Shown here: in pieces, positions 1 to 37,001 of the stretch
How positions within the stretch are numbered: the first letter of the stretch is position 1
Layout: every line of letters begins with the position of its first letter
Program-made: the position numbers and the translations under genes
The notes under the pieces: model-generated
Databases searched by the model: none
What the model saw: the letters and a program-made list of their open reading frames with translations, nothing else
What the model was told of the DNA's origin: nothing
Source of the DNA: a virus
Reading direction: 5' to 3' (one strand)
IMG/VR virus record: IMGVR_UViG_3300033150_001454
Location: 1-50,589 of that record
DNA: 50,589 bases

Positions 1-114
1 CTAATACATAGAGCATGACTCGGGCTTCCTGTACAGCCTTTGAAGTTAGCCTCTCTTTGAATACTCTTAAAAGATTCACTATAGCTAAATCCTCGTCGAT
101 TAGACCCATATTGA
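1..114. repeat. Terminal direct repeat, left copy
   Basis: Bases 1-114 are identical to bases 50476-50589. This is what an assembler leaves when a circular or terminally redundant genome is linearised. One open reading frame continues smoothly from this end into the sequence before the right copy, which supports true circular continuity. Unit length is 50,475 bp. The sequence alone cannot tell a circular molecule from a circularly permuted packaged one. Confidence 0.95.
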
Positions 115-2378: not shown

Positions 2379-2547
2379 TCTTCTCAACTTCCTCCCATAT
2401 TTTAATTATCGAAGTGAATAATAATAGGAGACCTAATGCAAAGATAGACTCAAACATTAAATGAGGACAGAGGCAAGATGACATCATAAGAATTGATCCG
2501 GTGAAACAGCTGATAGACCATAAATGCTTCTTCAAGAACTTATACAA
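2371..2547 (-). CDS. Small two-span membrane protein, TTG start
   Basis: A 58-residue frame starts with TTG at 2547, 10 bases after a GGAGG that lies inside the end of the helicase gene. It has two hydrophobic stretches (around TGSILMMSSCLCPHL and FALGLLLLFTSII) and a charged tail EEVEKNA that overlaps the next gene. An ATG-started version (2457) would keep only the second span and lacks a ribosome binding site. It fills the only gap between two certain genes. Function unknown; small membrane proteins of this kind include holins. Confidence 0.5.
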   Translation of the reverse strand: MYKFLKKHLWSISCFTGSILMMSSCLCPHLMFESIFALGLLLLFTSIIKIWEEVEKNA

Positions 2548-19227: not shown

Positions 19228-20055
19228 TCATTGCTTGCCGTACATTGCGAGGATGAGTTTCTCTCTCTCCTTCCTCTTCTTCTCTCGCTCTTTCTCACAC
19301 TTCTCAAACGTGAACTTAGGATCGTAGATGAACTGATAGCAGTTCTCGTCAAGGAACTTGTAGATTCGATTAATGGGTACGAAGAAGCCCATGTGCGTGA
19401 TAGCGTCTGCTGAGAAGCCGAACATCGCAACGGTCAGTCTTGCAGGCATGCCCAAGAACTCGAACCGTCCTCGTTCCTTAGACCACCTGAAGACTGCACC
19501 TCCCGAATTTCCAAATATGCTCTGTGCGGTGCTCATCCAGTATTCCTTGCCCTCAATTATCTCATCCATATAAGAAATAATCCCCTTAGTGGCGATTGGT
19601 TCGTGTCCCATAGCGGCTCCTACACAGTAGACTTCATCGAATACGTGTATATCATCCAGTTTCTCCTTAGGATATAAATTGGCTATGTATTCTATTGGGT
19701 TTTCATATCTTTCAAGCTCAAGCAAGGCGATATCTTCATCCTTCGAATACGCGACTATGTTGGCTCTATGCTCTCCTGAGCTTCCCTTACATCGGGAATA
19801 GTTCTCATAATAGAATATCTGAACAGATGGTTTCCCTAGGACTTCCATCTTTCTCTCCACTTTCGCTATCTCATCCCACTTTGTCTTTATCTCTATCAAA
19901 TCATCGACAACGTGTTCACATGTTAACACATAAGTCCTGAATTTTCCCTTATTGTCCTGTCCAGACCAAATTACTGTTCCAGAGCCTCCAGCCTTCTTAG
20001 CTCTCACTCGCACCGTAGTCCATAAAATCTGCTCATGCAAATCTTTTAAATCCAT
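19228..20055 (-). CDS. Trypsin-like serine protease
   Basis: The 275-residue protein shows the chymotrypsin/HtrA catalytic set: GSGTVIW then LTCEHVV (His48), DEDIALLELE (Asp108) and FGNSGGAVF (Ser184). The fold is complete in about 250 residues. There is no PDZ domain, no signal peptide, and a long charged C-terminal helix rich in Glu, Lys and Arg. It has its own TATA box (20085-20094). A secreted or membrane role is not supported by a leader. It may process virion or host proteins; the capsid module has a separate prohead protease. Confidence 0.88.
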   Translation of the reverse strand: MDLKDLHEQILWTTVRVRAKKAGGSGTVIWSGQDNKGKFRTYVLTCEHVVDDLIEIKTKWDEIAKVERKMEVLGKPSVQIFYYENYSRCKGSSGEHRANIVAYSKDEDIALLELERYENPIEYIANLYPKEKLDDIHVFDEVYCVGAAMGHEPIATKGIISYMDEIIEGKEYWMSTAQSIFGNSGGAVFRWSKERGRFEFLGMPARLTVAMFGFSADAITHMGFFVPINRIYKFLDENCYQFIYDPKFTFEKCEKEREKKRKEREKLILAMYGKQ

Positions 20056-21500: not shown

Positions 21501-22019
21501 ATGAGCAAGCGCAAATTCTTTCCCAAGCTTTCAGAATTCGTACCGTTCAAAGACCCCCTCCACGTGATATTTCCTTCAGCGCCCAAGTGTCCAAGATGTG
21601 GCGACTTCTTAGAACTCAGGAGCATAAAGCCTCATTGGTTCCCTTACATTCACGTTGACGTAGCATTCGAATGCGTAGTCTGCATGGAGTACTATACGTT
21701 TGGTATTCCAATGAATAGACATGCAGGACTCTCGTTAATTATATGGGATTCAAATCCGCAGGAAGCACTCAAGAAATTTCTGAAGTTAGGCAAGCGATAC
21801 TGTCCTTACAAGCATGGAGAAATGCTGCCCACAAAGATATTCGGAGACTGGATACCAGATACTGAGCAAGTAGAATATCAATGGAAATGCCCTGTCTGCT
21901 TCCTAACTAAACACGAGAGTTACAAGAGGACGTTCCCTCATTTGAAGAGGTCTCCATTCACCAAAGAGGAAGAAGAGTCCATAAAGAAGAAGCTACAAGA
22001 ATTAGGCTATTTAGCCTGA
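21501..22019 (+). CDS. Multi-cysteine zinc-binding protein, 172 aa
   Basis: A single rightward gene within a leftward region. The protein has a knuckle CPRC (about 30-33), CVVC (about 58-61), then YCPYKHGE and CPVC, arranged as two zinc-ribbon-like units, and a Lys/Glu-rich C-terminal helix. It starts MSKRKFFPKLSEFVPFKDPL. No enzymatic motif. It may be a host-interaction or regulatory protein; its isolated orientation with its own promoter fits separate timing. It overlaps the sulfatase-like gene end to end by 13 bases. Confidence 0.75.
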   Translation: MSKRKFFPKLSEFVPFKDPLHVIFPSAPKCPRCGDFLELRSIKPHWFPYIHVDVAFECVVCMEYYTFGIPMNRHAGLSLIIWDSNPQEALKKFLKLGKRYCPYKHGEMLPTKIFGDWIPDTEQVEYQWKCPVCFLTKHESYKRTFPHLKRSPFTKEEEESIKKKLQELGYLA

Positions 22020-22777
22020 GGAAATATCAGCTTACACTGAAATGGTACTTCGAATTCTATGGGATGTGCATAGATACCGTGTCCAATCTTGTGGTCCTCA
22101 CCCATAGCTTCTCCATGATCAGCTAGTACTAGTACATAAGTAGGATGACTAAATATAGATCTAGATAGTACTTCATCACAGTACATGATCATTTCTTTCT
22201 GTTTTCTCCTTATCAATTCGAAGAACTCTGGCTTGTAGACATCTTTCCCCTGATTATATTGTTTAGTACTTCCGTATAGAGTTCCATCGTACCCTTTCAG
22301 TGAATAAGGCCAATGCGTCTCCCCAGTCCACAGCACGAAGAATATAGGAGCCTTCTCAACTGATTTCTGATTCCATAGCTCAACTCCCTCCTTGCACACA
22401 TTATGATCTTTCATGAAGTGGTACTCATTAAAAGCTTCAATGGCTGAACGCACTGATATCATTCCTTTCCACAGCATTGGCATCCCAGTTATAAGTATCT
22501 TGTACTCTTTCCGTTTCTTTATGAAGTTAACTTCTCCAGACGATGCGTATGGAAAATCATCAGGCAGAGGATGAGGAAAGTATCCGTGCCCGAAGATCTC
22601 TACAAATGAAGGAGCGGTTATATTCGCATTCGAATATGCTCTTGTTACATTACCCAATCTCTTGAAGAATTTAGTCTTGGGCAGTACTTCGCAGAACAGG
22701 TCATATCTGCACGAGTCAAGGACGATGATGAAGTGATTCACCAGAGGCGTATGCCTCGACCCTTCTCCCATCTCCAT
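22007..22777 (-). CDS. Sulfatase/alkaline-phosphatase-superfamily enzyme
   Basis: The 256-residue protein has the opening IIVLDSCRYDLF, the superfamily metal-binding Asp followed by a Cys where sulfatases carry the residue turned into formylglycine. The rest of the sulfatase CxPxR signature is absent. Later motifs are WTGETHWPYS and VLADHGEAMGED with GHG, the metal-binding DHG. Members hydrolyse or transfer sulfate or phosphate esters, including phosphoglycerol transferases that modify cell-surface glycans. It is coupled to a glycosyltransferase (40-base overlap), suggesting joint glycan modification. No membrane anchor is seen. Confidence 0.82.
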   Translation of the reverse strand: MEMGEGSRHTPLVNHFIIVLDSCRYDLFCEVLPKTKFFKRLGNVTRAYSNANITAPSFVEIFGHGYFPHPLPDDFPYASSGEVNFIKKRKEYKILITGMPMLWKGMISVRSAIEAFNEYHFMKDHNVCKEGVELWNQKSVEKAPIFFVLWTGETHWPYSLKGYDGTLYGSTKQYNQGKDVYKPEFFELIRRKQKEMIMYCDEVLSRSIFSHPTYVLVLADHGEAMGEDHKIGHGIYAHPIEFEVPFQCKLIFPQAK

Positions 22778-24228: not shown

Positions 24229-25512
24229 CTATGTACTCTTGAGGTACTTGACAGCTCCGTTAGCCCTGAAGTTAGTGCATATCAATTGCGCGCCATACAA
24301 TAGCATGTGCCTCGTCTTGAGCATGTCGCCAGTCAACATGGCGTGTGGCGGAGTCTCAAGGTACGTTACGGGCACAGCAGTCCTTATCTCTATCGTGTCT
24401 AGGTCAATGATGTAAATGTTGCCTATGTCAGCATCAGTAATCGTCGCAGACCTGTTCGCAGATGTCTCGTTGGCTGCATGCCTCGTGGTGAAGAATGGTA
24501 TCTCAATTCCAGATGCAACGTAGGCTCCCACTGTGAAGCCTGCACGTGCACCTTTCCTCGTAGATACACCATTCATCGTCACTTGAACATCCACAGGAGT
24601 GTTCAGGAATCTCTGCTTAGGATCGATGAGCTTCTGCATCTCATTCAATGTCTTCGGACCAGTGATGCCGATGTACCGCTTATTCTTGCTGTAGGGCATG
24701 ATAGCCGCGACTACATCATCTATGTAGTCAAGCTTCAAGACCCTCGCAGCTGCCGATGAGGGCAAGGATAAGCCAGATCCAGCACCACAGCCGAATACAT
24801 CGTTAGAGTCAGCAGACCTATCGATCAATGCAGAAGATTTACCCCAGTAGATATCTGGGTCAGCAGCATCCGAGACGTAAGTCGTAGAAGCCTCTGCGCT
24901 TGCAGAGCAGATCCTGTCTATTGACTCAATGAATAGAGCACTTGATCCATCGTTGTTCACAGTATCGATGGTCTGACATAGCTTAGCGTCTATCTGGTGC
25001 GGGAACAGCTCAGCATGGTACTGCTTGATCCATTGAGGGTCAAGCTTTGGCTCAGTCTGCCACGTGCTCCTCGTCCTAGAGGGCAAGCTAGTCTCCCATG
25101 GGTCAACCATGTAAGCAGGCTCGAACTCCTCCAGAGTCGAGACGGTTGGTGCAGACTCAGCCGAACCAGATGCGAACGGTGTCGAAGATCCGCTTACGCC
25201 TTGAAGCCCAGCAAGGTCACTCGATACGTACTTGATCGAGTCTCCCTCTGCGAGGAACGTTGTCTTCCTCAATAGCTTCCAGACTTCAGTGGATCTTTCT
25301 ACCCACATCTGCACAGTTGCTGAGAACTTAGGCTCAAAGTAGTAGTTGTATGGAGACGCAGGAGCATCCCATGGACCTATAGCCTTCCTTATCGCATCGG
25401 ATACTGCTGAAGCCCCTCCAACGGAATCAAGTCCGAATAGAGTGGCTACCATCCCGCCCTTATTGTACCACCAGTCTAAATATTCCTTCCCGTATGGATA
25501 TCTAGGTATCAT
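24229..25512 (-). CDS. Major capsid protein, HK97-fold type
   Basis: The 427-residue protein follows the prohead protease/scaffold gene by 9 bases, the canonical place for the major capsid protein. It has a long N-terminal region with an E-loop-like stretch (PKFSATVQMWVERSTEVWKL), a mid domain (MVDPWETSLPS; TWQTEPKLDPQWIKQYHAEL) and a C-terminal A-domain-like part (RYIGITGPKTLNEMQKLID). No separate delta-domain is obvious; the N-terminal ~100 residues may be removed by the protease. Codon use is slightly more GC-rich, as expected for a highly expressed gene. Confidence 0.88.
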   Translation of the reverse strand: MIPRYPYGKEYLDWWYNKGGMVATLFGLDSVGGASAVSDAIRKAIGPWDAPASPYNYYFEPKFSATVQMWVERSTEVWKLLRKTTFLAEGDSIKYVSSDLAGLQGVSGSSTPFASGSAESAPTVSTLEEFEPAYMVDPWETSLPSRTRSTWQTEPKLDPQWIKQYHAELFPHQIDAKLCQTIDTVNNDGSSALFIESIDRICSASAEASTTYVSDAADPDIYWGKSSALIDRSADSNDVFGCGAGSGLSLPSSAAARVLKLDYIDDVVAAIMPYSKNKRYIGITGPKTLNEMQKLIDPKQRFLNTPVDVQVTMNGVSTRKGARAGFTVGAYVASGIEIPFFTTRHAANETSANRSATITDADIGNIYIIDLDTIEIRTAVPVTYLETPPHAMLTGDMLKTRHMLLYGAQLICTNFRANGAVKYLKST

Positions 25513-25520
25513 TCTCTATC

Positions 25521-26738
25521 TCACTCTCCTACCTCGTTCAATAGATCTTTGAAGGTCAATGCTTCGTCAGCCTTCTTCCTGATCTCATCAAGATTCACTG
25601 GTTCAAGCCCCTTATCCTTGGGCTGAACGCTCTTCTTGATGATCTCTTCGGCATTCTCAAGTCCGAGTTCCTTAATTATCTCGGCCTTCAGCTTATTGAA
25701 TTCTTCAACAGCCTTGTTGAATTCCTCTTCGCTCTCAAAGTCCTCCTTCTTCGGGTACTTGTAGTAGTAATAGTCTTTCTTCTTTTTCTTCTTGGCTTTT
25801 TCAGCTTCCTCTTCCTCTTCTTTAGGCTTAGGCTCTGCCTTGTTCTTCTTCTTCCATTCGAGAGCGCATTCTTTCATACTCTTCCCTGACTTCATGCAGT
25901 TCTTCATGAAGCTCTTGTAAGACTCCTTGTCAACAACGTCGAGAATTGCCGCAAAGTCCTCAATCTCTTTCTCTAGCTTCTTCTCTTCTTCGGCGCGCAC
26001 AATTACATCGTTGAGCTTGCTGGTAAGTTTCTTGACTTCCTCGATAAGCGCTGTAACTTCCGCTTTCTCGATTTTCTCTTCTTCTTCCTCCATTTTCGAT
26101 CGGTCTTCTTTTAATATGGACGTATTAATAAATGTTTCACCCAGATTTTCGTCCCAATCCTCATTAGCGTTATCTTCTTTTGAGAGGATGAATGCCTTAG
26201 CCTTCGGATTCTTCCCTTCCTCACACGAAGTTATCTCGTAAAGCTCAAGCTTTACTATCTCGGTCCAGCATTTATCATCATCACACCTGACTTCTCGACC
26301 GCCTGGAAGAACCCTCCCTCCTATGCTGAACGACATGAGCTCTCCTTTCTTCATTCTCCCAATGACTTCTCTTCCCGTAACAGTATCATCGAATACTTCT
26401 GCCACTACAAATAAGCCCTTATTATCAACTCCTGACTTCCACACTTTGCCATTCTTATCAACAAATTTAGGAAGCAGTTCTCCTATCTGTATATTCTGAT
26501 GATGAAGCATAAGGTTGCGTCTGGATTTCCTCTTCATCATCCTCTCGAATGCTTCTTTCAGAGCCTCAGGCCTGATCCTCTCATTGTCCTTATCCACAAC
26601 GTCTACTGAGGCATAACCAGCAATGATGAATCTGGACTTCTCACTCTTAAGGATAAAACATGGGGCTGAATAATATACTGCTTCCTGAAAAGCCAGTTCA
26701 GAAGCTTGATCCATGGGCACTAAGACGTACTCGCTCAT
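25521..26738 (-). CDS. Prohead protease with fused scaffold domain
   Basis: Start set at 26738 (MSEYVLVPMDQASELAFQEA), two bases after the preceding stop; an upstream start (26768) would overlap that gene. Residues 30-185 match HK97/S78-type prohead proteases: AGYASVDVVDKDNERI, a catalytic His region (MLHHQN), and Ser in ELMSFSIGG. After about 200, the protein becomes extremely charged (long Glu/Lys runs, coiled coil), a scaffolding domain. Such fusions guide capsid assembly and are self-cleaved. A tyrosine run near DYYYYKY is unusual. Strong call by motifs and position. Confidence 0.88.
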   Translation of the reverse strand: MSEYVLVPMDQASELAFQEAVYYSAPCFILKSEKSRFIIAGYASVDVVDKDNERIRPEALKEAFERMMKRKSRRNLMLHHQNIQIGELLPKFVDKNGKVWKSGVDNKGLFVVAEVFDDTVTGREVIGRMKKGELMSFSIGGRVLPGGREVRCDDDKCWTEIVKLELYEITSCEEGKNPKAKAFILSKEDNANEDWDENLGETFINTSILKEDRSKMEEEEEKIEKAEVTALIEEVKKLTSKLNDVIVRAEEEKKLEKEIEDFAAILDVVDKESYKSFMKNCMKSGKSMKECALEWKKKNKAEPKPKEEEEEAEKAKKKKKKDYYYYKYPKKEDFESEEEFNKAVEEFNKLKAEIIKELGLENAEEIIKKSVQPKDKGLEPVNLDEIRKKADEALTFKDLLNEVGE

Positions 26739-26740
26739 GC

Positions 26741-29002
26741 TCACCCTCTCACCTGCACTCCTTCCCATTCAATAAATGGTTTAAAGTCAAACTCTCTTTT
26801 AATCCTTTCTATATCCCACACCTTCTTGTCAAACTTAAGTGACTGTATCCTTGCTCCGTGTATCGTACCAGGCCTCGGATATAGACAGATATTAGCCTCA
26901 ACTCCTTCAGGCAGTTCTGGTATCTTATACCGCTTAGCTTTCTCCTCTCCTTCGCATCTCGTAAAGTCTCTTATATCGTGTAAGTGAACCCTGATGAACG
27001 TAGCTTTCTCTTCATATCTCAATTCCTTCTTCATTGATTTAGGCGCTTCTGCTTTGATGCCCAGCTCATTCAGGCGTCTTAATGCATTAGGACCGAACGA
27101 ACCAGCGACTACCTTAGTTACTCGGAATGATGCTATGAATTCAGCCGTTTTAGGGCCAGCAGGCGTCTCATCCTTATGAGGATTCTTGACGATTTTCTCA
27201 CCTATCTTGAAGTACGGTGCTCTCGCAAATACTCGTGATATACTCTCTTTATCCTCTTCTAATGCATAAGCGATCTTCTCCTCTTTCTTCATGCCTGGAA
27301 GTGCGGACTTTATAAATCTCCAAGTCTCACCATCAGACTTCAGCACATAATATCCTTTAAGTGAATCACCATAAAATACGAAGCTTCTAAACAGCTGAGA
27401 CTTCTCTATGAAATCAACCTTGCCTCTATCAAGAACGTAAACGTCAGTCCATACTCCTCCAACCTTTCTCCTGCCTTCAGCCTCCATCCATGTCTTATCA
27501 TAACACTTCTTCAATGTAACGACTTCAGACTCATCAATCTTATATTTCCTAGGATCCTTCTTGAGAGACCACTCGATCAGATAGTCTTCTCCTTCATCTA
27601 TTCTGATGTCGTAATGAGATCCTCCTTTCCACTCATGCTTGTGTAATACGAAGCTTCCCGATGCCTTCTTGATGTTAGACTTACTGAAGGAATAAAGATC
27701 AGAGCCTCTCTCCTCCTGCTCAAGCTTCCAGAACTTGCCCAGCTTGCCAGAGAACGAAAGTATTAATATCTCTTTGCCGTTTTTCCGCCTAGCGTCCACA
27801 TACACTGATCCCTTATCAAGTATCTTAACGTCCGCATTCAGCCTCTTACGAGGGTTGAATAACTCACCAGGTTTCAGCTTGCCTTCAAACTCAAACCATC
27901 TCTTAGGAGCCTGACCTATATACCCAACAACTGTAGGATGTACGTATAAAGGATTATACCACAACTCCCACGTCCTTATCTTATCTCCTTGCTTAATGTT
28001 CAAGAACCAATGCATCACGGGTACGTCTCTGACGACTTTCTGCCCTTTCCAGCTCATCTGCTGTAGAGTATACTGAGCCTCAGCTTTCAACAGCTCCTTA
28101 GTCTCGCCCCATTGCTCCTTAACCCATTCAAGCCATTCCTCAAATCTTTGCCTGTTCTTCTCTATCCACCACTTAGGTATCGGTATGAAGCCCTTAGGAG
28201 GCACCCATCCCGTCTTCTTACCTCTCTTAACTGCATACGGATCTTGATCACGAGGCACCCATCCTTCCCACATCAATTCAAACTTACCTGGCTTAGGCTT
28301 CTTAGTCTCAGGATCTATAACAGCTTGCTTAACTGCTCTCATGTTTATCCTTATCTTCTCAAATGTAAGTTTGTGTTTCTTCTTAGCAATTGAGTCTAAG
28401 AAATACTCGTGATACCAAGGCTTTTGAGCACCGAATGTAATGTACCCCTTATCAACTATCAAGAATCTACCTGGTTCAAATCTGGTCGCCCCTACAGTGC
28501 CAGGTTTAACTTCAAATGTCTCACCTGTATCCATCTTTATGATGAGCTTGTCTAAGTCTGCTTCAACTTCATATGAAGTGCCCACATCAAGTTTCCATAG
28601 TTGATCGAAATGAATGGCTGAGCACGGACCCCACTCTTCCTTCCAGAATAGCCATACTTTAGGTTGTCTAGCCTTAGTCTCACATCTACACTTCTTGTTG
28701 TTCATGCCAGGGACGGGTCTGAACGTCCAATCTAATTTCTCGATGAGAGAAGGAAGCTCATCTACTGTTGGGGCATGGTCTATCTTCGGATTGTCAAGGA
28801 TAGTCCAGCCTACCAAATGATTGTTTACCTCGCATCTAAAATCGAAGTGATGACTACGCCCGCGCCAATGCGATTGTAATACATACCTTACCTTGCCATT
28901 CTTCTCATTCGGAGGAAGCTCTAGGTAGATGGGCTTGCTCCATGGAATCTTAGGCTCTTCCTTCATCAGCAAATCCTGTGTGATTCTCATTCTTCTCGCC
29001 AC
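26741..29002 (-). CDS. Large protein with two LigD-type 3'-phosphoesterase-like domains
   Basis: The 753-residue protein has two segments resembling the phosphoesterase (PE) domain of bacterial LigD. The first is around residues 38-70 (RYVLQSHWRGRSHHFDFR, then VGWTILD). The second is around 450-490 (FVLHKHEWKGGSHYDIR, then IEWSLKKDP). Both match the LigD pattern FVVQxHxARxLHYDFR with its His and Asp residues; LigD-PE removes 3' phosphates and ribonucleotides before end ligation. Regions 240-380 and 560-753 are unassigned. It overlaps the ligase-bearing gene upstream by 16 bases and lies between portal and prohead protease, so it may be an internal virion protein. Confidence 0.75.
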   Translation of the reverse strand: MARRMRITQDLLMKEEPKIPWSKPIYLELPPNEKNGKVRYVLQSHWRGRSHHFDFRCEVNNHLVGWTILDNPKIDHAPTVDELPSLIEKLDWTFRPVPGMNNKKCRCETKARQPKVWLFWKEEWGPCSAIHFDQLWKLDVGTSYEVEADLDKLIIKMDTGETFEVKPGTVGATRFEPGRFLIVDKGYITFGAQKPWYHEYFLDSIAKKKHKLTFEKIRINMRAVKQAVIDPETKKPKPGKFELMWEGWVPRDQDPYAVKRGKKTGWVPPKGFIPIPKWWIEKNRQRFEEWLEWVKEQWGETKELLKAEAQYTLQQMSWKGQKVVRDVPVMHWFLNIKQGDKIRTWELWYNPLYVHPTVVGYIGQAPKRWFEFEGKLKPGELFNPRKRLNADVKILDKGSVYVDARRKNGKEILILSFSGKLGKFWKLEQEERGSDLYSFSKSNIKKASGSFVLHKHEWKGGSHYDIRIDEGEDYLIEWSLKKDPRKYKIDESEVVTLKKCYDKTWMEAEGRRKVGGVWTDVYVLDRGKVDFIEKSQLFRSFVFYGDSLKGYYVLKSDGETWRFIKSALPGMKKEEKIAYALEEDKESISRVFARAPYFKIGEKIVKNPHKDETPAGPKTAEFIASFRVTKVVAGSFGPNALRRLNELGIKAEAPKSMKKELRYEEKATFIRVHLHDIRDFTRCEGEEKAKRYKIPELPEGVEANICLYPRPGTIHGARIQSLKFDKKVWDIERIKREFDFKPFIEWEGVQVRG

Positions 29003-32000
29003 GTGTAATAATATGGTTTTACCCTTCTACACTTATAATAATTAGCCAGCTTACAATCTATTGGATACTTAAGCTCCTCAACTCTTAGCTTCACATCCTT
29101 TGACTTCCACACTCCGTTCACTAATATCTTGATCCGATCCATAAGCGGGCATATGTCTTTATTAAATGCATATTTTTCTGGACATAAAGGTAGTTTTATC
29201 TCAATTATCTCCTCGTCTGCTTTCTCAGTTCGCTCATAAGGTCTCGTCCCAAGCTTCGAAAGCTTCTCTACTACGTCTATAGGATCAGGATCTTTCTTCT
29301 CAGGTCTCCATAATCCTGCTTTCGGAAACATCCATGTGTAAAATATCTTACCGTTCTCTTCGCTTCTCTCTATTCGGATAGGCATGACTGTTAAGATATC
29401 ACCTTCATTCTTCTTGCCTTTTACATTATAAACTGTACCAATTCTTAGGTACTTTCTGCCTTCGAACTCCATAATATCTTGTTCTCTATACTTGTTCAAA
29501 TCCTTCTCAGGTATTGGTCCTACAACACCTTGCCACGTGAACACATCTCTAGTGCCTCTCACAAGATGAGGCTTAAGTACCATTACATCCAATTCCTTAA
29601 GGTTCTTAAGCTTAGCCCAATCCTTATTCCTTGCAGCTCTATCATACCTTATCTTATAGACTGAGTCAGTGGTTTTATATACTGCTCCTTCAGAATTTGG
29701 GAAGTATCTAGCCCACTTCGAGCATTTGAAGAATTCCCTCATGTCGTTTGCCGTCTTTGACTCAACTATATGGAAGTGTTTGCCTTCTTTTAATATCTCT
29801 TTAAGCTTATCATACCTCTCAATCGCAGGCTTCTGCGTAAAGTCTTCTCCATCTACATACAACAGATCATGCACATGAAATATTACTCGTTTATCGTCTA
29901 AGGAAGAAGGCTTAGCTGCGATCCACTTCACTAAGTCCTCTCTCGGTATTTGCCTGTATTTAGTCCATAACTTGTCATTTTCTGGATATTCTAATTTATC
30001 AGAATATTCCACTATCTCAGCCACTAAGATAGCATCCTTAGCTTTCAATAACTTGGGCAATTCCTTAACTGATTCCTTGAAGGCTTTAATCCTGTTTCTC
30101 AACTGATCTTCAGTGAAGAATCCTATTGGCTTACCATCCTTAACATGTATCTGAAAGCTCATTCCGTCATACTTAGGCTGAATCATTATGCCCCTATCTA
30201 TCCTAGAAGCCGCCCACTTAGTCCACGCATTCTCTACTTTCCAGAACTCATTCTTCTGCCATCCCGATTCAGGCTTTTGAGGCTGGGATGGCTTCCCTAT
30301 TCTCAGCGAGCTGTCTTTCTCAAGCTTGCCTTCTCTCGATATGTAGAGCGGAATTGACAGACCTATGCCGCCCCTCGTATCGAATATGAACTCAAGCTTC
30401 TCCCTCACGTCATTCCTCGTACACGCATGTATCAAGGCTCTCTTCACTTCTGGTAAAGGTTTCTCAGAAGCTACCCTGATATCTATGTCGTGATGTGTTA
30501 CCCATCCCCTATTAGCTATACCTCCTACGAGGTATATTGCTGGAACGTCAGCTGGCAGCTTAATAACGTCAGGGAATGAGTCTATGACTTCCTGTAGAGT
30601 GATCTTCTTCTCAGCCTTCTCCCATGGAGGGTACTCCTGTATCCAGAACCTAGCCTCTTGGCTCAGCTCGTCATTTATGTGCCTCTCAATCCCTCTCCTC
30701 TTCATCTCGTTCTCTACGAATATCTCAGCATTCAATAGAGGCTCAGTAACCTTCTTCTTCTCTTCATATATCTTATGCAGTTCTTCGTATAATTCCTTAA
30801 GCTCTTTGTCGCTAAGCTTTTCTACATAATGATCATCTATCTTATCTAGATCTATAGCTTTATGTACTAGTACTGTAGTACTATAATTATCATAAGCCAT
30901 TTCAGCCCCTAATTTAGTCAGCTCTTTATCCAATTTGTCCCCTAATTTGATAGGTTCAGATCCGAAATGAGTGAATATGATTCTCTTTACTCCAGCCTCC
31001 TTACACCACTCGATCTGCTTAGGAATGCCTGCATGACCGATAGCTTCGTCTCTCTTCTCATCCCACCTCACTAATCCATCTTCTCTAAGAGTGGATCCAT
31101 CACCTATGTACAAGTCACAACCAGACAAGAATTTCTTTCTGTGTTCTTCTCGTATACTCAGAACATCAGATGCATAACAGATTCTGTATCCTCCAACTGA
31201 GATGAATAATGCAACGTTAGGAGCTTTCGTAGAATGCAGAACTGGTACAGAAATAACTTCAATATCTCCAACTCTGAATGCACTCCTACGCTTGAACACC
31301 GTCTTATTGAACTTATAATCCTCTTCTTTGTAGTACTCAGAATGAGTTGAAGCATCAGTGATGAATACAGGCACGCCTACCTTCTTGTCTTTAAGACCGA
31401 ATAAGTGATCGGGGTGTGCATGAGTAATTATTATGGCATCACAATCTGGTAAAGCTCCATTCACATCTCCCCAATCAATCAACAGCCTCGTCTTGCCATC
31501 ATCTATCAGCAGAGAAGACCTCTTATTATGCTTCGCTGATTTCTCGTCTACATATCCACGAGTGCCAAGAAACGTCAAAACCACATCAGATTTGCTCAAT
31601 CTTGGTATCTTTATGGGATAATTAGCTATTAATAATTCTCTCTTAGTTGGATAATCGCTCCTTAGGGCTCTCCTCGTTAAGAAGCTCTTTACTTCGAAGC
31701 CTCCTTCCTTGAATAGTTTTCCGATTAATGGATCATCACTAAAACTAAGCAAAAACTTGCCTTTTATCTTCTTACAAGCCTCAAATAACCTCTTCTTGAA
31801 TCGCTCAGGCTCCTCATTCTTTATATCTTCATCCATGTACGGAGGGTCTAAATAGAAGAACGTATCTGAAGAGTCGTATTTCCTTAGGATTTTTTCAAAG
31901 TCTTCATTTTTAATAATAGTATTTTTTAAGCGCTCTCTATAATCCTCAGGTCTCGTCACGTATCCACACTTAGTTCTCTCATCCTTCCTATGTGCAAAGT

Positions 32001-33000
32001 TCTCCATATTCCCTCCATAAGAGTGCATGTTGAGGTATATGAGCTTGTAAGCTTTCTCCACATCTTCTCTAGGATCCAATTTCTTAAGCTTATCGAACTT
32101 CTCTTCGGATGGAGTATAATCCATGCTCTTAAGTTTCTTTAGCTGCTCATCGGATGCATCCCTCAGGAACTTTAATAGAAACACATATCTCTCGTCTATA
32201 TCGTTCAGTACTTCTTTGCTTACAGGTTCCTTCTTCCAGAATAACGAAGCTCCTCCAGCGAATGGTTCTACATAGACCTTATGAGGAGGAATATTCTCCA
32301 AGAAGATCTGCACTTGCCTATCCTTACCGAGAGGATGAGCGAAGGGCTTTTTCATCTTCTTTATCTGAACATCGTTAATCTTCACTTGTGCACCCTGAGG
32401 TCTCACGTATTCCTTAGGCTCTTCAAACTTCTTAAACTTAAACTTGTAGACGTAGTATCGAACCCTGTCACCCCACCAATCCCTCGCCTCCTTATCCGTT
32501 ACAAGATGGTATTTTCTCAAGTTCTGAAATCCATTTTCGTCTACTTCAGCCATCCCTGTAAGGGTGATTATCCCATATACCTTATCGCCGCACAGGTACA
32601 TGGGATGGTGTAGGAGGTTCTCGAACCTGCGAGCTTTGACTATGAGTGTCTTTATGCCTTTCCATATAAGCCGAGCATGAGGCTCTACGAGATAGAGACC
32701 GTCTAAAGCTTTTGAAAGATATATGCCCTTTCTGGACAGCCTTCTTGAAATTTTACGAAAAAGCTCCTTTCCATGCTCATTATACTTCTCAGGATGAAAC
32801 TCTATGCCTCGTTTATGTAATTCTTCAGCTATCTTAGTGGCTATATCTATTATCTCTTTGTATGAATGCTTAAGCCTTTTCCCTTGTTTCTTAGACGAGT
32901 ACCAAGCAAATGCTATCCTGTAGTCGTCCTGAAGTACCTTAGTACTGTACTTATTAGGATTGTACGTACTTATGTCTTGTATTTTAAGTAAGAGACTCAT
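28987..33000 (-). CDS. Giant multidomain protein: ASCH/PUA-like, Dam methylase, MBL, NTase, DNA ligase
   Basis: A 1,337-residue polyvalent protein. Order: helical 1-100. PUA/ASCH-like 105-205 (PHARLIWKGIKTLIVK). DNA adenine methylase 215-465 with FAGGASLFW (248-255) and DPPY (385-388). Metallo-beta-lactamase fold 470-715 with HAHPDH (527-532), His589, Asp612 and His678. Nucleotidyltransferase 795-895 (VGGIANRG...HHDIDI). ATP-dependent DNA ligase 920-1215 with KYDGMS (Lys943 nucleophile), AEIVEY and EGAVYK. A C-terminal cysteine cluster follows. All key residues look intact. The location between portal and prohead protease suggests a virion-packaged enzyme for DNA modification and end repair. 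Domain calls are strong, biology inferred. Confidence 0.88.
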   Translation of the reverse strand: MSLLLKIQDISTYNPNKYSTKVLQDDYRIAFAWYSSKKQGKRLKHSYKEIIDIATKIAEELHKRGIEFHPEKYNEHGKELFRKISRRLSRKGIYLSKALDGLYLVEPHARLIWKGIKTLIVKARRFENLLHHPMYLCGDKVYGIITLTGMAEVDENGFQNLRKYHLVTDKEARDWWGDRVRYYVYKFKFKKFEEPKEYVRPQGAQVKINDVQIKKMKKPFAHPLGKDRQVQIFLENIPPHKVYVEPFAGGASLFWKKEPVSKEVLNDIDERYVFLLKFLRDASDEQLKKLKSMDYTPSEEKFDKLKKLDPREDVEKAYKLIYLNMHSYGGNMENFAHRKDERTKCGYVTRPEDYRERLKNTIIKNEDFEKILRKYDSSDTFFYLDPPYMDEDIKNEEPERFKKRLFEACKKIKGKFLLSFSDDPLIGKLFKEGGFEVKSFLTRRALRSDYPTKRELLIANYPIKIPRLSKSDVVLTFLGTRGYVDEKSAKHNKRSSLLIDDGKTRLLIDWGDVNGALPDCDAIIITHAHPDHLFGLKDKKVGVPVFITDASTHSEYYKEEDYKFNKTVFKRRSAFRVGDIEVISVPVLHSTKAPNVALFISVGGYRICYASDVLSIREEHRKKFLSGCDLYIGDGSTLREDGLVRWDEKRDEAIGHAGIPKQIEWCKEAGVKRIIFTHFGSEPIKLGDKLDKELTKLGAEMAYDNYSTTVLVHKAIDLDKIDDHYVEKLSDKELKELYEELHKIYEEKKKVTEPLLNAEIFVENEMKRRGIERHINDELSQEARFWIQEYPPWEKAEKKITLQEVIDSFPDVIKLPADVPAIYLVGGIANRGWVTHHDIDIRVASEKPLPEVKRALIHACTRNDVREKLEFIFDTRGGIGLSIPLYISREGKLEKDSSLRIGKPSQPQKPESGWQKNEFWKVENAWTKWAASRIDRGIMIQPKYDGMSFQIHVKDGKPIGFFTEDQLRNRIKAFKESVKELPKLLKAKDAILVAEIVEYSDKLEYPENDKLWTKYRQIPREDLVKWIAAKPSSLDDKRVIFHVHDLLYVDGEDFTQKPAIERYDKLKEILKEGKHFHIVESKTANDMREFFKCSKWARYFPNSEGAVYKTTDSVYKIRYDRAARNKDWAKLKNLKELDVMVLKPHLVRGTRDVFTWQGVVGPIPEKDLNKYREQDIMEFEGRKYLRIGTVYNVKGKKNEGDILTVMPIRIERSEENGKIFYTWMFPKAGLWRPEKKDPDPIDVVEKLSKLGTRPYERTEKADEEIIEIKLPLCPEKYAFNKDICPLMDRIKILVNGVWKSKDVKLRVEELKYPIDCKLANYYKCRRVKPYYYTWREE

Positions 33001-34535
33001 TATTCAGGCTCACCACGCGTACCGTGAGGCCATCTTTCTACAGTCGTTCCAGCTATCACCTGCTCACTTGCATCACTAACCTTAGGCTTCTGCTTGGCTC
33101 TCCTCTTAGGTCTCTTCTTATCAGGAACTTCAGATAACGTAGGCTCTAAAGGAATAACAAGCTTACCATACTCATTGAATCTCACATCGAATCCCGCACT
33201 CCTCAAAGTCAATAGCGTATTAGCGTCTATCTGTCTTATCTGAGCTTCTCTAAGCGCATCCTTAGCCTCTATAGGATTGAATTTGAATAACCAATCAGTA
33301 ATGCCGAATCTAGGCAGTAAGAAGCTGTTAAACATTTCCTCTTTATCCCTCTGTATCTCCTTGATGGTCCTGTTCTGCACTTCGAGTTTGATGTAAGGTG
33401 CAACCGAAGAGCTTCTTGTGGCTTTCGTGGGCAATCCTAGGAATACTGTCTGCACGCCGAATACTGAGCATATTGACTGGATATAAGTCATGTAGAATTC
33501 GAGGGACTGCATCTCATCAAGTGCTGGCATTGCTCTGATGAACTGTATTGGCTGTTCAGATCCGAGCATAAGCGTCCTTATCGTCTTCTTCGTCCTCATG
33601 ACGCCGCTTACATCTTGCACTTCTCTCCTCTTCAAGTCAGCCTGTATTTCAGCCTGTAATGCTTTTATCTGATCCTTGTTATAGCCCGGAAAGTTGAGTA
33701 TGCCGCCCAATTTTCCTTCGCTGTAAGCATCTAAGTTGTATTCATCCATGACTTTAACAGTGTGTATCAGATCCCATACTGCTATGAGCTTGGGCCTGCC
33801 GTGTAATTCAGGCAGTACCCTTCCAGTAGAACCATGAACCATCCAGTCTTCAGAGGATCTAGCGGTTATATTACCATCTACGACTTGTACGTAAGCCGTT
33901 CGTTCAAGAGGCAATCCGCATTGAGGACAGTTTCCTGGCTTGTCATAGTATGTGTCTGGTGTGTAGCATACGGGACAATAATATTCGTCTATACCGAGTC
34001 TCCCATACTCATCAGCTATAGGTACCCAGTACCGAGAATCCTCTACACGAATTTCTGCTGGTCTTATCTGCAAGTCGCCGTCTTTATCTTTCATCTTGGC
34101 TGGCAGTATGGAGACGTACCAGTCATCGGCTATTACGTCGTGGTAGATCACGCTTCTTAACAAGTCGCCGAAAGAATAATCAGAGTTTGGGTGTTGGATG
34201 AGGCTATCGAAGAGCCTTGCCTGTGCTTGACTGGGTGGTCTCGTCTTACTGCCGCAGATGGGACATTCAGCGATGGATTCCTGAAACTCGGCTTGACACG
34301 CAGTGCACTTGGACTTGAATTTGGGCTCTCGCCTCCATCCAGGTCTCACTACTTCCTGAGTTATGACTCTTACAATAGCTTGGATGAGCCACGATTCCTC
34401 AGCCACTCTGTAGATCATGGGGTAATTCCATTTCGGTATCCTGAGCTGAGGCTCGGGACTGAGATGGTAGGACGGTATTACGGATCTCGTTGACTTCTCG
34501 ATGGCTGTCGGTGGCTTCTCAGTTACCCAAGGCAA
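33000..34535 (-). CDS. Portal protein with two inserted zinc ribbons
   Basis: The 511-residue portal is preceded by a GAGGTG site six bases before a TTG start. The N-terminal wing (YRVAEESWLIQAIVRVITQE) contains C77-x2-C80...C91-x2-C94, and a second zinc ribbon lies at C187-x2-C190...C203-x2-C206. The stem/clip part shows PALDEMQSLEFYMTYIQSIC, then VFLGLPTKATRSSSV as in SPP1/HK97-type portals. A basic C-terminal tail follows. Position next to the large terminase is classic. Zinc ribbons in portals occur in archaeal viruses and probably stabilise the dodecamer. Confidence 0.88.
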   Translation of the reverse strand: MPWVTEKPPTAIEKSTRSVIPSYHLSPEPQLRIPKWNYPMIYRVAEESWLIQAIVRVITQEVVRPGWRREPKFKSKCTACQAEFQESIAECPICGSKTRPPSQAQARLFDSLIQHPNSDYSFGDLLRSVIYHDVIADDWYVSILPAKMKDKDGDLQIRPAEIRVEDSRYWVPIADEYGRLGIDEYYCPVCYTPDTYYDKPGNCPQCGLPLERTAYVQVVDGNITARSSEDWMVHGSTGRVLPELHGRPKLIAVWDLIHTVKVMDEYNLDAYSEGKLGGILNFPGYNKDQIKALQAEIQADLKRREVQDVSGVMRTKKTIRTLMLGSEQPIQFIRAMPALDEMQSLEFYMTYIQSICSVFGVQTVFLGLPTKATRSSSVAPYIKLEVQNRTIKEIQRDKEEMFNSFLLPRFGITDWLFKFNPIEAKDALREAQIRQIDANTLLTLRSAGFDVRFNEYGKLVIPLEPTLSEVPDKKRPKRRAKQKPKVSDASEQVIAGTTVERWPHGTRGEPE

Positions 34536-34787: not shown

Positions 34788-36023
34788 TTACCATTCCATG
34801 AATGCGAAGCCAGGTATAGTCGATCCCTTTCTCAAGCCCCACGCAGCCAGCGCTAATGCAATAACACAGTCATCATGGAACCCTTTAGGAGCATTATATT
34901 TATGCTTTCCACTAGACGTAGTCTCTACTCCAAATACTTCTATCTCGTTCAGGAGTTCTGGAATCTCAGGGAACGTTATTTCAGCTTGCTCCAGCATCAA
35001 TGCTAAGTTGTCTATCAGAGCTACCTTCTTTGTTGGACTCAAGTAGTAAGGCTTTACTCTTGGATATAATTGGAGTATAAAATCGTATATGGGATCTCCT
35101 AATCCCGTAGAATCGACGAATAGCTCTGCATTGTACTGAGATACGAGGTTGATGACCCGCTTAACTTGAAGGGGCCAATCAACGCTCTTGAATCTATCGA
35201 ATGCTACGAGATGACCGTGCTCATCCAGAATGATGACAACCGTGAAGTCAGTCCTTTTGCCGAAGTCTACGCCAGCCACGTAACTCTTGTCTGAGGATGG
35301 AGGCTCAAAGTCCCCTTTAATGTTCAGGACCTTATTAGTTGCAGGATTGCGCCTGAGTCTGAATACTGAACCCAGATCAGATAAGAACTCAGCGCCAAAT
35401 TCCTGTCTGAAGAGCCTCTCGGGCATGCCCTTCCTTGCAGACTCTATCTCCTTAGGATCGATGTACGGATTAGTCCAAGTGGGAAAATGAAAGCTCTCCC
35501 ACTCACTTCCCTCTATCTTGCCCATCATGTATACTTCATAGAACCAATTCAAGCCCTTAGGAGTGGAAATGAACAATGCCTTGCCGAATTTGTCGGGATC
35601 TGAAAGGCGCGGTCTGACACATTCAAACCACACTTCACGCCTCATTCTTGCACACTCATCCAAGACTACGAAGTCAAGACCCTGCGCTCTTAAGTGCTCG
35701 TAATCCTCAGTGCTCTTGAACCATATCCAGCTGTCATTCACCATCTTTATAGCCTTCTCAGAATGGTTTATCTTCGCTATCAGAGCTTTGGGCACCTCTT
35801 CTAAGAACATCCTCCACGCAACCAATACTTCAGACCAAGAGGGAGCTAACCACCATATCTTCGCTTTGGGTTTGCCCAAGTACCAGAGACACTCAAAGAT
35901 TCCCATCTTGGTCTTACCCCATCTGGCACCAGCTCTCACAACCCTGAATCGAGCCTTACTCCTATGCACTTGAGCTTGACCTGGATGCGGTCTATAGTCT
36001 ATCACTACTTGCTGGATCGACAT
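34788..36023 (-). CDS. terL: Terminase large subunit
   Basis: The 411-residue protein has an ATPase N-terminal half: Walker A RAGARWGKT (30-38), Walker B VVLDE (119-123) and coupling motif FISTP (151-155). The nuclease half has acidic residues in VAGVDFGKRTD (D253), LFVDSTGLGD (D304) and FHDDCVIAL (near 389). All expected RNase-H-fold metal ligands are present. It cuts and pumps viral DNA into proheads through the portal encoded two genes downstream. Length is at the short end for TerL. Very firm call. Confidence 0.96.
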   Translation of the reverse strand: MSIQQVVIDYRPHPGQAQVHRSKARFRVVRAGARWGKTKMGIFECLWYLGKPKAKIWWLAPSWSEVLVAWRMFLEEVPKALIAKINHSEKAIKMVNDSWIWFKSTEDYEHLRAQGLDFVVLDECARMRREVWFECVRPRLSDPDKFGKALFISTPKGLNWFYEVYMMGKIEGSEWESFHFPTWTNPYIDPKEIESARKGMPERLFRQEFGAEFLSDLGSVFRLRRNPATNKVLNIKGDFEPPSSDKSYVAGVDFGKRTDFTVVIILDEHGHLVAFDRFKSVDWPLQVKRVINLVSQYNAELFVDSTGLGDPIYDFILQLYPRVKPYYLSPTKKVALIDNLALMLEQAEITFPEIPELLNEIEVFGVETTSSGKHKYNAPKGFHDDCVIALALAAWGLRKGSTIPGFAFMEW

Positions 36024-36142
36024 TCTTCTACCCCAATTTCTGACTCAATGAAATCATAATGCGCTGATAACGATTTAAGTATCCTGTTTATCTTCAATAT
36101 CTTGCGCTCTTCCTTGAGCACTTGAAGTATTTCTTTATCCAT
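36005..36142 (-). CDS. Small coiled-coil protein before terminase, 45 aa
   Basis: An ATG overlapping the phosphoesterase stop (ATGGATAA) opens a 45-residue charged helix (MDKEILQVLKEERKILKINR and on) that overlaps the terminase start by 19 bases. The tight overlaps on both sides suggest a real, coupled gene. It may be a small terminase cofactor by position; no family recognised. Confidence 0.58.
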   Translation of the reverse strand: MDKEILQVLKEERKILKINRILKSLSAHYDFIESEIGVEECRSSK

Positions 36143-37001
36143 CTCTAAGATAATCAGATATCCTGGGAGGCTTAAATAGGTAATGGTGTATGAGTATCCT
36201 ATCCTGCTCGTCTATGAAGAGTATGACACCTCCAATGTGAGGCTGCATTTTACCATACAGCCTTATCGTGCCCCTATACGGAAACCATGCACACCATCCT
36301 GGTACTTGAAGTATGTGTTGGTTAGGTAAATGTATATGGATAAATCTATGCCAGTGCGCTCTAACCACTACATCAGGCAAGAATTCCAAATCTCCAAGAC
36401 CATAAGCTGCAGCTTCGAATAATGCTTCTCGATCCATCAATGTAGTTCTGTAGATGCTTGCTCCAGATACGCCGTGTGCTAGATTGAGTATTCGATTTGT
36501 GCCCTTAAGCCTGATATTAGCCATCAAACCGTGGAAGTGAGCTTCTTCTGCAACATCCTCAAGCTCCTTAGTCAGATCATAATGTATCCTCGTATCTATG
36601 GATTCATGATAAGGAGTACCAGATAAACAATGTACTATCTTATTAGTACATAGTTTGTACAATAAGAGATAAGCTGCATCCTTCTGTTCATCAAGATTCG
36701 TCGTTATCGTATCAATTCCTCTTCCTGCAGGATTGTTGCCCTGTATGATATCACCTAATAAGATGACAGTATCTATTCCCCAAGCATCGCATATTTCTTC
36801 CCACTTCTTCCAGTACTCGTAGAGAAGTACTTGCCCTGCATTTCTGGATGCGCTAAGATCATTTCCTTCTTTACTGATAACGTCAGGCGGAAATATTGCA
36901 TACCTAGATCCAACATGAGTATCAGCTACGAATGCTACTACTCGTTTGAACTTTTGAGTCAGTTCTCTAGGGCGAGCGGGAGGCGTCCACTTCTCGCTCA
37001 A
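36135..37001 (-). CDS. Calcineurin-like metallophosphoesterase
   Basis: The 288-residue protein has the family's metal motifs: FVADTHVGSRYA (DxH), VILLGDIIQGN (GD), a GNHD-equivalent SGTPYHES, NLAHGVSG, and AHWHRF (HxH). This places it with Mre11/YfcE-type phosphoesterases. It is a single-domain protein without Mre11 capping or Rad50 partner. Its position immediately upstream of TerL is seen in other archaeal head-tail viruses. Substrate unknown; it may act on DNA ends during packaging or on host nucleotides. Confidence 0.88.
   Translation of the reverse strand: MSEKWTPPARPRELTQKFKRVVAFVADTHVGSRYAIFPPDVISKEGNDLSASRNAGQVLLYEYWKKWEEICDAWGIDTVILLGDIIQGNNPAGRGIDTITTNLDEQKDAAYLLLYKLCTNKIVHCLSGTPYHESIDTRIHYDLTKELEDVAEEAHFHGLMANIRLKGTNRILNLAHGVSGASIYRTTLMDREALFEAAAYGLGDLEFLPDVVVRAHWHRFIHIHLPNQHILQVPGWCAWFPYRGTIRLYGKMQPHIGGVILFIDEQDRILIHHYLFKPPRISDYLRDG

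What the first reader, a model, noticed from the sequence alone, without database searches (positions are those of the whole stretch)
28987..33000. 1,337-residue polyvalent enzyme with methylase, MBL, nucleotidyltransferase and DNA ligase
Seen: a single frame with intact motifs for five enzymatic or binding modules (PUA/ASCH-like, FAGG/DPPY methylase, HAHPDH beta-lactamase fold, GG...HHDIDI nucleotidyltransferase, KYDG ligase) and a C-terminal Cys cluster. Known: polyvalent proteins with many domains are described in phages and conjugative elements and can be delivered with DNA. Inference: its place between portal and prohead protease suggests it is packaged in the head and acts on viral DNA on entry. 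I know of no described archaeal-virus protein with this exact order.
Basis: partly seen in the sequence, partly recalled or inferred. Interest (0 to 1): 0.9.

Follow-up and report, generated by a model that had tools for sequence, protein, structure and literature searches.

The report
Archaeal-virus LigD-like multi-enzyme head-gene protein
A tailed virus, probably of an archaeon, carries among its head-building genes a giant protein that joins a DNA methylase, a phosphodiesterase-type enzyme, a nucleotide-adding enzyme and a DNA ligase, next to a second protein with the end-trimming domain of bacterial DNA-break repair, which suggests that the virus brings its own kit for mending the ends of its DNA.

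Summary
The ORF is real: 28987-33000 (-), 1337 aa, one frame, same architecture in independent viral contigs, under strong purifying selection in every domain. Confirmed: D12 N6-adenine methylase, MBL (PhnP/YhfI/RNase Z branch) and archaeal-type ATP-dependent DNA ligase with OB fold. The Pol-beta-type nucleotidyltransferase rests on conserved motifs, the ASCH/PUA-like domain on a weak match; an invariant Cys4 cluster ends the protein. NTase, ligase and PE co-occur in permuted order in ANMV-1 virus, in a second viral contig of an Archaeoglobales MAG, and in a phage contig where the set is fused to an XkdF prohead protease; relatives carry inteins in the ligase and PE domains. Best explanation: a LigD-like DNA-end healing and sealing machine made with the head, perhaps carried in the virion, with methylase and MBL as accessories against host defence. 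Packaging and activity are unproven; no Ku was found. Partial precedents exist (polyvalent proteins, ANMV-1 ligase, PHROG enzyme-XkdF fusions), so it is a new variant of a known kind.

The parts
28987..33000 (-). 1337-aa multidomain protein (P0001)
   Evidence: homologues; purifying selection
32713..33000 (-). N-terminal helical region (aa 1-96), also present in permuted position in the Archaeoglobales-MAG homologue
32368..32712 (-). ASCH/PUA-like domain (aa 97-211), weak
   Evidence: profile A4 against 1wk2/2dp9, E=0.08 over the whole domain; 40% identical in permuted homologue
31603..32367 (-). D12-class N6-adenine DNA methyltransferase (aa 212-466; VEPFAGG, DPPY)
   Evidence: PF02086 7e-21; phrog_56 8e-45; type II MTase models
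30865..31593 (-). Metallo-beta-lactamase-fold domain, PhnP/YhfI/RNase Z-type (aa 470-712; HAHPDH, H589, D612, H678)
   Evidence: PF12706 5e-17; Foldseek YhfI 2.5e-11, PhnP 2.9e-10, RNase Z 5.9e-10, Apyc1 3.5e-8
30631..30852 (-). Helical hairpin (aa 717-790), shared with permuted homologue, L026/L027 and L009
30286..30609 (-). Pol-beta-type nucleotidyltransferase (aa 798-905; GG826/827, D838, D840, candidate third Asp D874)
   Evidence: motifs invariant in 6 sequences; only weak TdT match
29596..30261 (-). ATP-dependent DNA ligase adenylation domain (aa 914-1135; KYDG 943, E995, SEG 1103, KLK 1130)
   Evidence: PF01068 6e-21; profile A7 to archaeal DNA ligases 4eq5/3rr5, E~1e-19
29248..29595 (-). 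Ligase OB-fold domain (aa 1136-1251)
   Evidence: alignment to 4eq5/3rr5 runs through this region
28990..29247 (-). C-terminal Cys4 domain (C1273, C1284, C1316, C1324), metal or Fe-S site inferred
   Evidence: four Cys invariant down to 36% identity
26741..29002 (-). Partner protein P0002, 753 aa by the GTG start; the ATG at 28990 overlapping the upstream TGA (ATGA) gives 749 aa and is likelier
28361..28942 (-). PE1, LigD 3'-phosphoesterase-like (H45, H52, D54; GAQKPWYHEYF signature at 191-201)
   Evidence: PF13298 3e-5; TIGR02777 5e-8; alignment A5
27677..28087 (-). PE-like domain 2 (degenerate)
   Evidence: A6; in homologue P0014 PF13298 2e-6 at 404-444
27296..27673 (-). PE3, LigD 3'-phosphoesterase fold, metal-binding H/H/D kept
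   Evidence: profile to 3p4h E=5e-7; Foldseek 8e-6; VIA Z=14.7, rmsd 2.4, 116 aligned
27038..27262 (-). MTH1175/NifX-like domain inserted only in this copy
   Evidence: PF02579 7e-6; 1eo1 7e-8; absent in relatives
33000..34535 (-). Portal protein, stop/start overlap TAATG with P0001
   Evidence: PF04860 1e-12
25521..26768 (-). Prohead protease S78, overlaps P0002 by 28 nt
   Evidence: PF04586 6e-13
24229..25512 (-). Major head protein
   Evidence: phrog_24667 8e-10
34788..36023 (-). Terminase large subunit
   Evidence: phrog_2 7e-45
1..114 (.). Terminal direct repeat, identical to 50476-50589: the contig closes on itself and is probably complete

Best explanation
The 1337-aa protein and its coupled partner (26741-29002) form a LigD-like DNA-end healing and sealing machine made together with the head of a tailed, probably archaeal, virus. 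The PE-type domains would clean 3' ends, the Pol-beta-type nucleotidyltransferase would add or fill nucleotides, and the archaeal-type ATP-dependent ligase would seal nicks or join ends of the viral DNA. The Dam-type methylase and the PhnP/Apyc1-like MBL phosphodiesterase are swappable accessories, most likely for resisting restriction and nucleotide-signal defence. Co-production with portal, protease and capsid suggests that the machine is loaded into the prohead and enters with the DNA. Shown: the ligase, methylase, MBL and PE families, co-occurrence, purifying selection, gene overlap. Supported by motifs only: the NTase. Inferred: activity, substrate, packaging, time of action.
For: Ligase, MTase and MBL above Pfam cut-off; ligase closest in the PDB to archaeal DNA ligases. 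PE confirmed by profile, Foldseek and Z=14.7. NTase, ligase and PE co-occur in divergent contexts with different orders: window (NTase-Lig | PE-PE-PE), ANMV-1 (NTase-Lig-PE-PE in one gene), L027 (NTase-PE-PE-Lig-XkdF protease), and the second MAG contig. Such shuffling with retention argues that the three act together. Fusion to XkdF (8e-33) and PHROGs joining MTase or ligase with XkdF tie these enzymes to prohead assembly. Inteins in relatives sit at ligase motif V and in PE1; inteins usually choose active-site regions (general knowledge). dN/dS ~0.05. LigD precedent: PE processes ends, POL adds bases, LIG seals (PMC7719229).
Against: No Ku in the window, relatives, ANMV-1 or the MAG. PE3 seems to lack the His/Tyr pair that follows the metal triad in canonical LigD PE (alignments), so PE activity may be altered or lost. 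The NTase is motif-level only and has no significant structural match. A genome that closes on itself (114-bp terminal repeat) may circularise by recombination without end joining. The model of the large protein is poor (pLDDT 42). No proteomics; no packaging signal tested. The XkdF fusion rests on one contig; a near-identical contig has a 1-base difference that splits it.
Confidence: 0.45

Rival explanations
1. Late, non-packaged DNA-finishing enzyme: expressed with the head genes, it methylates and seals nicks or gaps in concatemeric genomes before or during packaging and stays in the dying cell.
For: Same operon data; ligase of replicative archaeal type; virion delivery has no direct evidence.
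Against: Fusion of the same set to the XkdF prohead protease in L027 and PHROG fusions point to the prohead; some relatives lack the methylase.
Confidence: 0.27
2. Classic polyvalent counter-defence effector: the enzymes act mainly on host defence (methylation against restriction, MBL against cyclic-nucleotide signalling, ligase/NTase/PE reversing nuclease damage) after injection.
For: Module swapping; MBL closest to PhnP/YhfI/RNase Z and also similar to Apyc1; MTase like type II MTases; polyvalent proteins described with portal-terminase phages (PMC5512222).
Against: The stable core across viruses is NTase-ligase-PE, not the anti-defence parts; ANMV-1 lacks MBL and MTase in this protein. None of the polyvalent-specific domains was identified.
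Confidence: 0.15
3. RNA repair: the NTase, ligase and MBL (RNase Z-like) repair tRNA or RNA damaged by host nucleases.
For: MBL resembles RNase Z; weak RNA_ligase match in relatives.
Against: Ligase profile matches DNA ligases at E~1e-19 with an OB domain; PE belongs to the LigD DNA-repair family; a DNA methylase is fused.
Confidence: 0.08

Closest known systems
ANMV-1 virus 'ATP-dependent DNA ligase' (AJP62006.1, KP703175)
   Same: NTase-ligase-OB-PE-PE in one 866-aa protein directly after a portal gene
   Different: No N-terminal region, ASCH, MTase, MBL or Cys4 domain; 25% identity; one gene instead of two
Bacterial LigD / archaeal NHEJ set (PE, Pol, Lig)
   Same: PE domain fold (Z up to 14.7) and ATP-dependent ligase, plus a nucleotidyl-transferring domain, in shuffled order
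   Different: Pol-beta-type NTase in place of the AEP-type LigD polymerase; ligase scores far below the LigD/NHEJ equivalog cut-offs; no Ku; several PE copies; lies in head genes
Polyvalent proteins (Iyer et al. 2017, PMC5512222)
   Same: Many enzymatic domains in one polypeptide, swapped between relatives, next to portal-terminase genes; Pol-beta NTases and MTases also occur there
   Different: A search of the paper's text finds no lactamase, ASCH or LigD, and it notes a paucity of such proteins in archaea; none of its hallmark domains (MPTase, ArdC-N, DdrB-ParB) was identified here
PHROG MTase-XkdF and ligase-XkdF families (phrog_13242, phrog_1530, phrog_14859)
   Same: D12 MTase or ligase-type enzyme joined to the XkdF prohead protease
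   Different: One enzyme only; the window's set is separate from its S78-family protease
Apyc1 / PhnP / YhfI MBL phosphodiesterases
   Same: Similar MBL fold and metal motifs
   Different: Embedded in a multi-enzyme chain; substrate unknown

Membership tests
LigD-type NHEJ machinery | LigD 3'-phosphoesterase domain | tested here: met
   PE3: 3p4h E=5e-7, Foldseek 8e-6, Z=14.7; PE1: TIGR02777 5e-8, below its curated cut-off
LigD-type NHEJ machinery | Ligase domain of LigD/NHEJ type | tested here: not met
   TIGR02779 56.8 bits against cut-off 227.75; TIGR02776 46.8 against 373.2; closest solved structures are replicative archaeal ligases
LigD-type NHEJ machinery | AEP/LigD-type polymerase domain | tested here: inconclusive
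   No such Pfam or NCBIfam hit in either protein; a Pol-beta-type NTase is present instead
LigD-type NHEJ machinery | Ku partner | tested here: not met
   PF02735 absent from the window, relatives, ANMV-1 and the MAG; control rings in Bacillus subtilis. Ku could come from the host: genus Archaeoglobus is reported to encode it (PMC7719229)
Polyvalent proteins | Several unrelated enzymatic domains in one chain, shuffled among relatives | tested here: met
Polyvalent proteins | Encoded with portal-terminase virion genes | tested here: met
Polyvalent proteins | Delivered into the host with the DNA | not testable with these tools
   Needs virion proteomics
D12 N6-adenine methyltransferase | Family profile plus FxGG and DPPY motifs | tested here: met
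   PF02086 75.5 bits against cut-off 22; motifs
Metallo-beta-lactamase superfamily | HxHxDH, later His, Asp and His metal ligands and fold | tested here: met
   PF12706 62.7 bits against 27; ligands invariant; Foldseek 2.5e-11
Apyc1 anti-Pycsar nuclease | Cleaves cyclic nucleotides | not testable with these tools
   Fold similarity only; sequence profile E=0.07
ATP-dependent DNA ligase | Adenylation-domain motifs and OB domain | tested here: met
   PF01068 75.5 bits against 26.2
Pol-beta-type nucleotidyltransferase | GG motif, DxD and third Asp | tested here: met
   Invariant in six sequences; third Asp position depends on the alignment
Pol-beta-type nucleotidyltransferase | Significant profile or fold match | tested here: inconclusive
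   TdT E~0.5; model of this segment under pLDDT 50
ASCH/PUA-like | Profile or fold match | tested here: inconclusive
   TTHA0113 E=0.08; no Pfam hit; model segment under pLDDT 50

The most novel reading that the evidence does not exclude
Tailed archaeal viruses package a Ku-independent, LigD-like end-joining machine (PE + Pol-beta NTase + ligase) in the head and use it at entry to heal and circularise headful genomes: a virion-borne end-joining system not described before.
Probability: 0.22. Interest if true: 0.88.

Novelty: new variant of a known kind. Interest (0 to 1): 0.64.

Why it matters
Archaea are reported to be poor in polyvalent proteins and in complete NHEJ. A conserved, shuffled NTase-ligase-PE set in the head genes of archaeal viruses would extend both ideas, bear on how viral genomes are repaired or circularised on entry, and offer a compact, probably thermophilic, end-processing enzyme set that can be tested in vitro.

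Tried and rejected
Chimeric assembly: rejected, same architecture in independent metagenome contigs and a MAG contig. Chance motifs: rejected for MTase, MBL, ligase and PE by significant profiles. AlphaFold of residues 1-1200 was poor outside the MBL and helical parts (pLDDT 42), so it does not decide ASCH or NTase; the last 137 residues were not modelled. PE1 was also poorly modelled. CRISPR-spacer link to relatives of the Archaeoglobales MAG: only 18 kb of the window against 80 genomes, no repeat array around the four hits inspected. Most genome-contig hits of the PE signature pattern had no tblastn support and look like chance. The search for related loci with the NTase/ligase alignment gave no new relatives. 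Searches of the open-access library found no paper describing this protein; by word count the ANMV-1 paper does not mention a ligase. VIA-align listed no PE structure against PE-like domain 2, which proves nothing. PADLOC gave only the methylase.
Full report
Observation. The frame 28987..33000 (-) is real and uninterrupted, 1337 aa. Pfam finds a D12 adenine methyltransferase, an MBL domain and an ATP-dependent DNA ligase, all far above cut-off. PHROGs and NCBIfam agree, PADLOC for the methylase. Motif positions are given. The nucleotidyltransferase and the ASCH/PUA-like domain have no significant library match; the first rests on residues invariant in six sequences, the second on a weak full-length match to TTHA0113. 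The C-terminal four cysteines are invariant down to 36% identity. Two further parts were missed: an OB fold after the ligase core and a helical hairpin before the NTase.

Surroundings. The protease is not the next gene. A 749-753 aa protein lies between, overlapping P0001 by ATGA, while P0001 starts in the portal's stop codon (TAATG). This partner carries LigD 3'-phosphoesterase-like domains: PE1 by TIGR02777 and LigD_N, both below curated cut-off, PE3 by profile, Foldseek and a Z of 14.7 to a LigD-superfamily PE of known structure, and a degenerate PE2 whose homologue in the MAG virus matches LigD_N. The copy in the window alone also holds a MTH1175/NifX-like domain. The window ends in a 114-bp direct repeat and a relative in a 104-bp one, so both genomes close on themselves.

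Relatives. Close relatives (82-84%) come from IMG/VR contigs and from contig QMZE01000003.1 of an Archaeoglobales MAG, isolate B35_G2. Every domain is under strong purifying selection, dN/dS about 0.05. L003 and the MAG copy carry an intein at ligase motif V, and L004 and the MAG copy one in PE1, with a LAGLIDADG domain. A second viral contig of the same MAG encodes MBL-ASCH-N-terminal region-helical-NTase-ligase-OB-Cys4 without methylase, followed by its own PE protein: the modules are permuted. ANMV-1 virus, the only hit for the ligase half in 50,697 phage records, has NTase-ligase-PE-PE in one gene after a portal. The phage contig L027 has helical-NTase-PE-PE-ligase-OB and, in frame, an XkdF prohead protease (8e-33); the near-identical L026 differs by one base at the junction, which splits the frame there, so the fusion needs confirmation. 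PHROGs independently join D12 methylase or ligase-type domains with XkdF.

Mechanism. NTase, ligase and PE stay together while their order changes, which argues that they work on one substrate. In LigD, PE processes ends, the polymerase adds bases and the ligase seals (PMC7719229). I therefore propose a LigD-like end-healing and sealing machine for viral DNA, made with the head and possibly packaged. The methylase and the MBL are accessory; the MBL belongs with PhnP/YhfI/RNase Z phosphodiesterases and also resembles the anti-Pycsar enzyme Apyc1. Shown are the families, co-occurrence, selection and gene overlap; activity, substrate, packaging and timing are inferred.

Limits. No Ku was found, the ligase is not of the LigD type by curated cut-offs, and PE3 seems to lack the second catalytic His/Tyr pair of canonical PE (my reading of the alignments; the residue roles are from memory). 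It resembles LigD in composition but is not filed as a member. The archaeal host is likely from the MAG and from ANMV-1, not proven: binning can err and no spacer link was found.

Known or new. Polyvalent proteins are described (PMC5512222), with a stated paucity in archaea; a word search of the text finds no lactamase, ASCH or LigD. I found no paper on this protein or on the ANMV-1 ligase. It is a new variant of a known kind.

Noticed in passing
L003 (P0003 aa 1125-1441); L004 (P0005 aa 77-398); L038 (P0016 and P0017): Inteins inserted at ligase motif V and inside the PE1 domain of close relatives; absent from the window copy. The MAG copy carries both.
   Followed up: partly
27038-27262: MTH1175/NifX (Dinitrogenase FeMo-Co) domain inserted in the PE protein of this virus only.
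   Followed up: partly
1-114 and 50476-50589: Exact 114-bp terminal direct repeat; the window closes on itself and is probably a complete genome.
   Followed up: yes
L006 1913-3193 (KP703175.1): ANMV-1 'MutT-like phage hydrolase' AJP62005.1 is a portal protein (PF06381, 3e-22): misannotation.
   Followed up: yes
L006 5868-9368: ANMV-1 1166-aa Cys-rich repeat protein whose last residues look like a MuF-type head protein end.
   Followed up: no
L045 2878-3927 and other Lactococcus/Pseudomonas phages: Head proteases that some records annotate 'DNA methyltransferase', apparently by transfer from PHROG families that fuse MTase and XkdF.
   Followed up: partly
2540-4081: 513-aa protein with a weak Hint-type match (E 0.02), possibly an intein or other Hint domain.
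   Followed up: no
36135-37001: Weak calcineurin-like phosphoesterase match upstream of the terminase; might be another nucleic-acid enzyme.
   Followed up: no
22007-22777 and 19228-20055: Sulfatase-like (3.5e-8) and trypsin-like peptidase (9e-13) genes near the head module of a virus.
   Followed up: no
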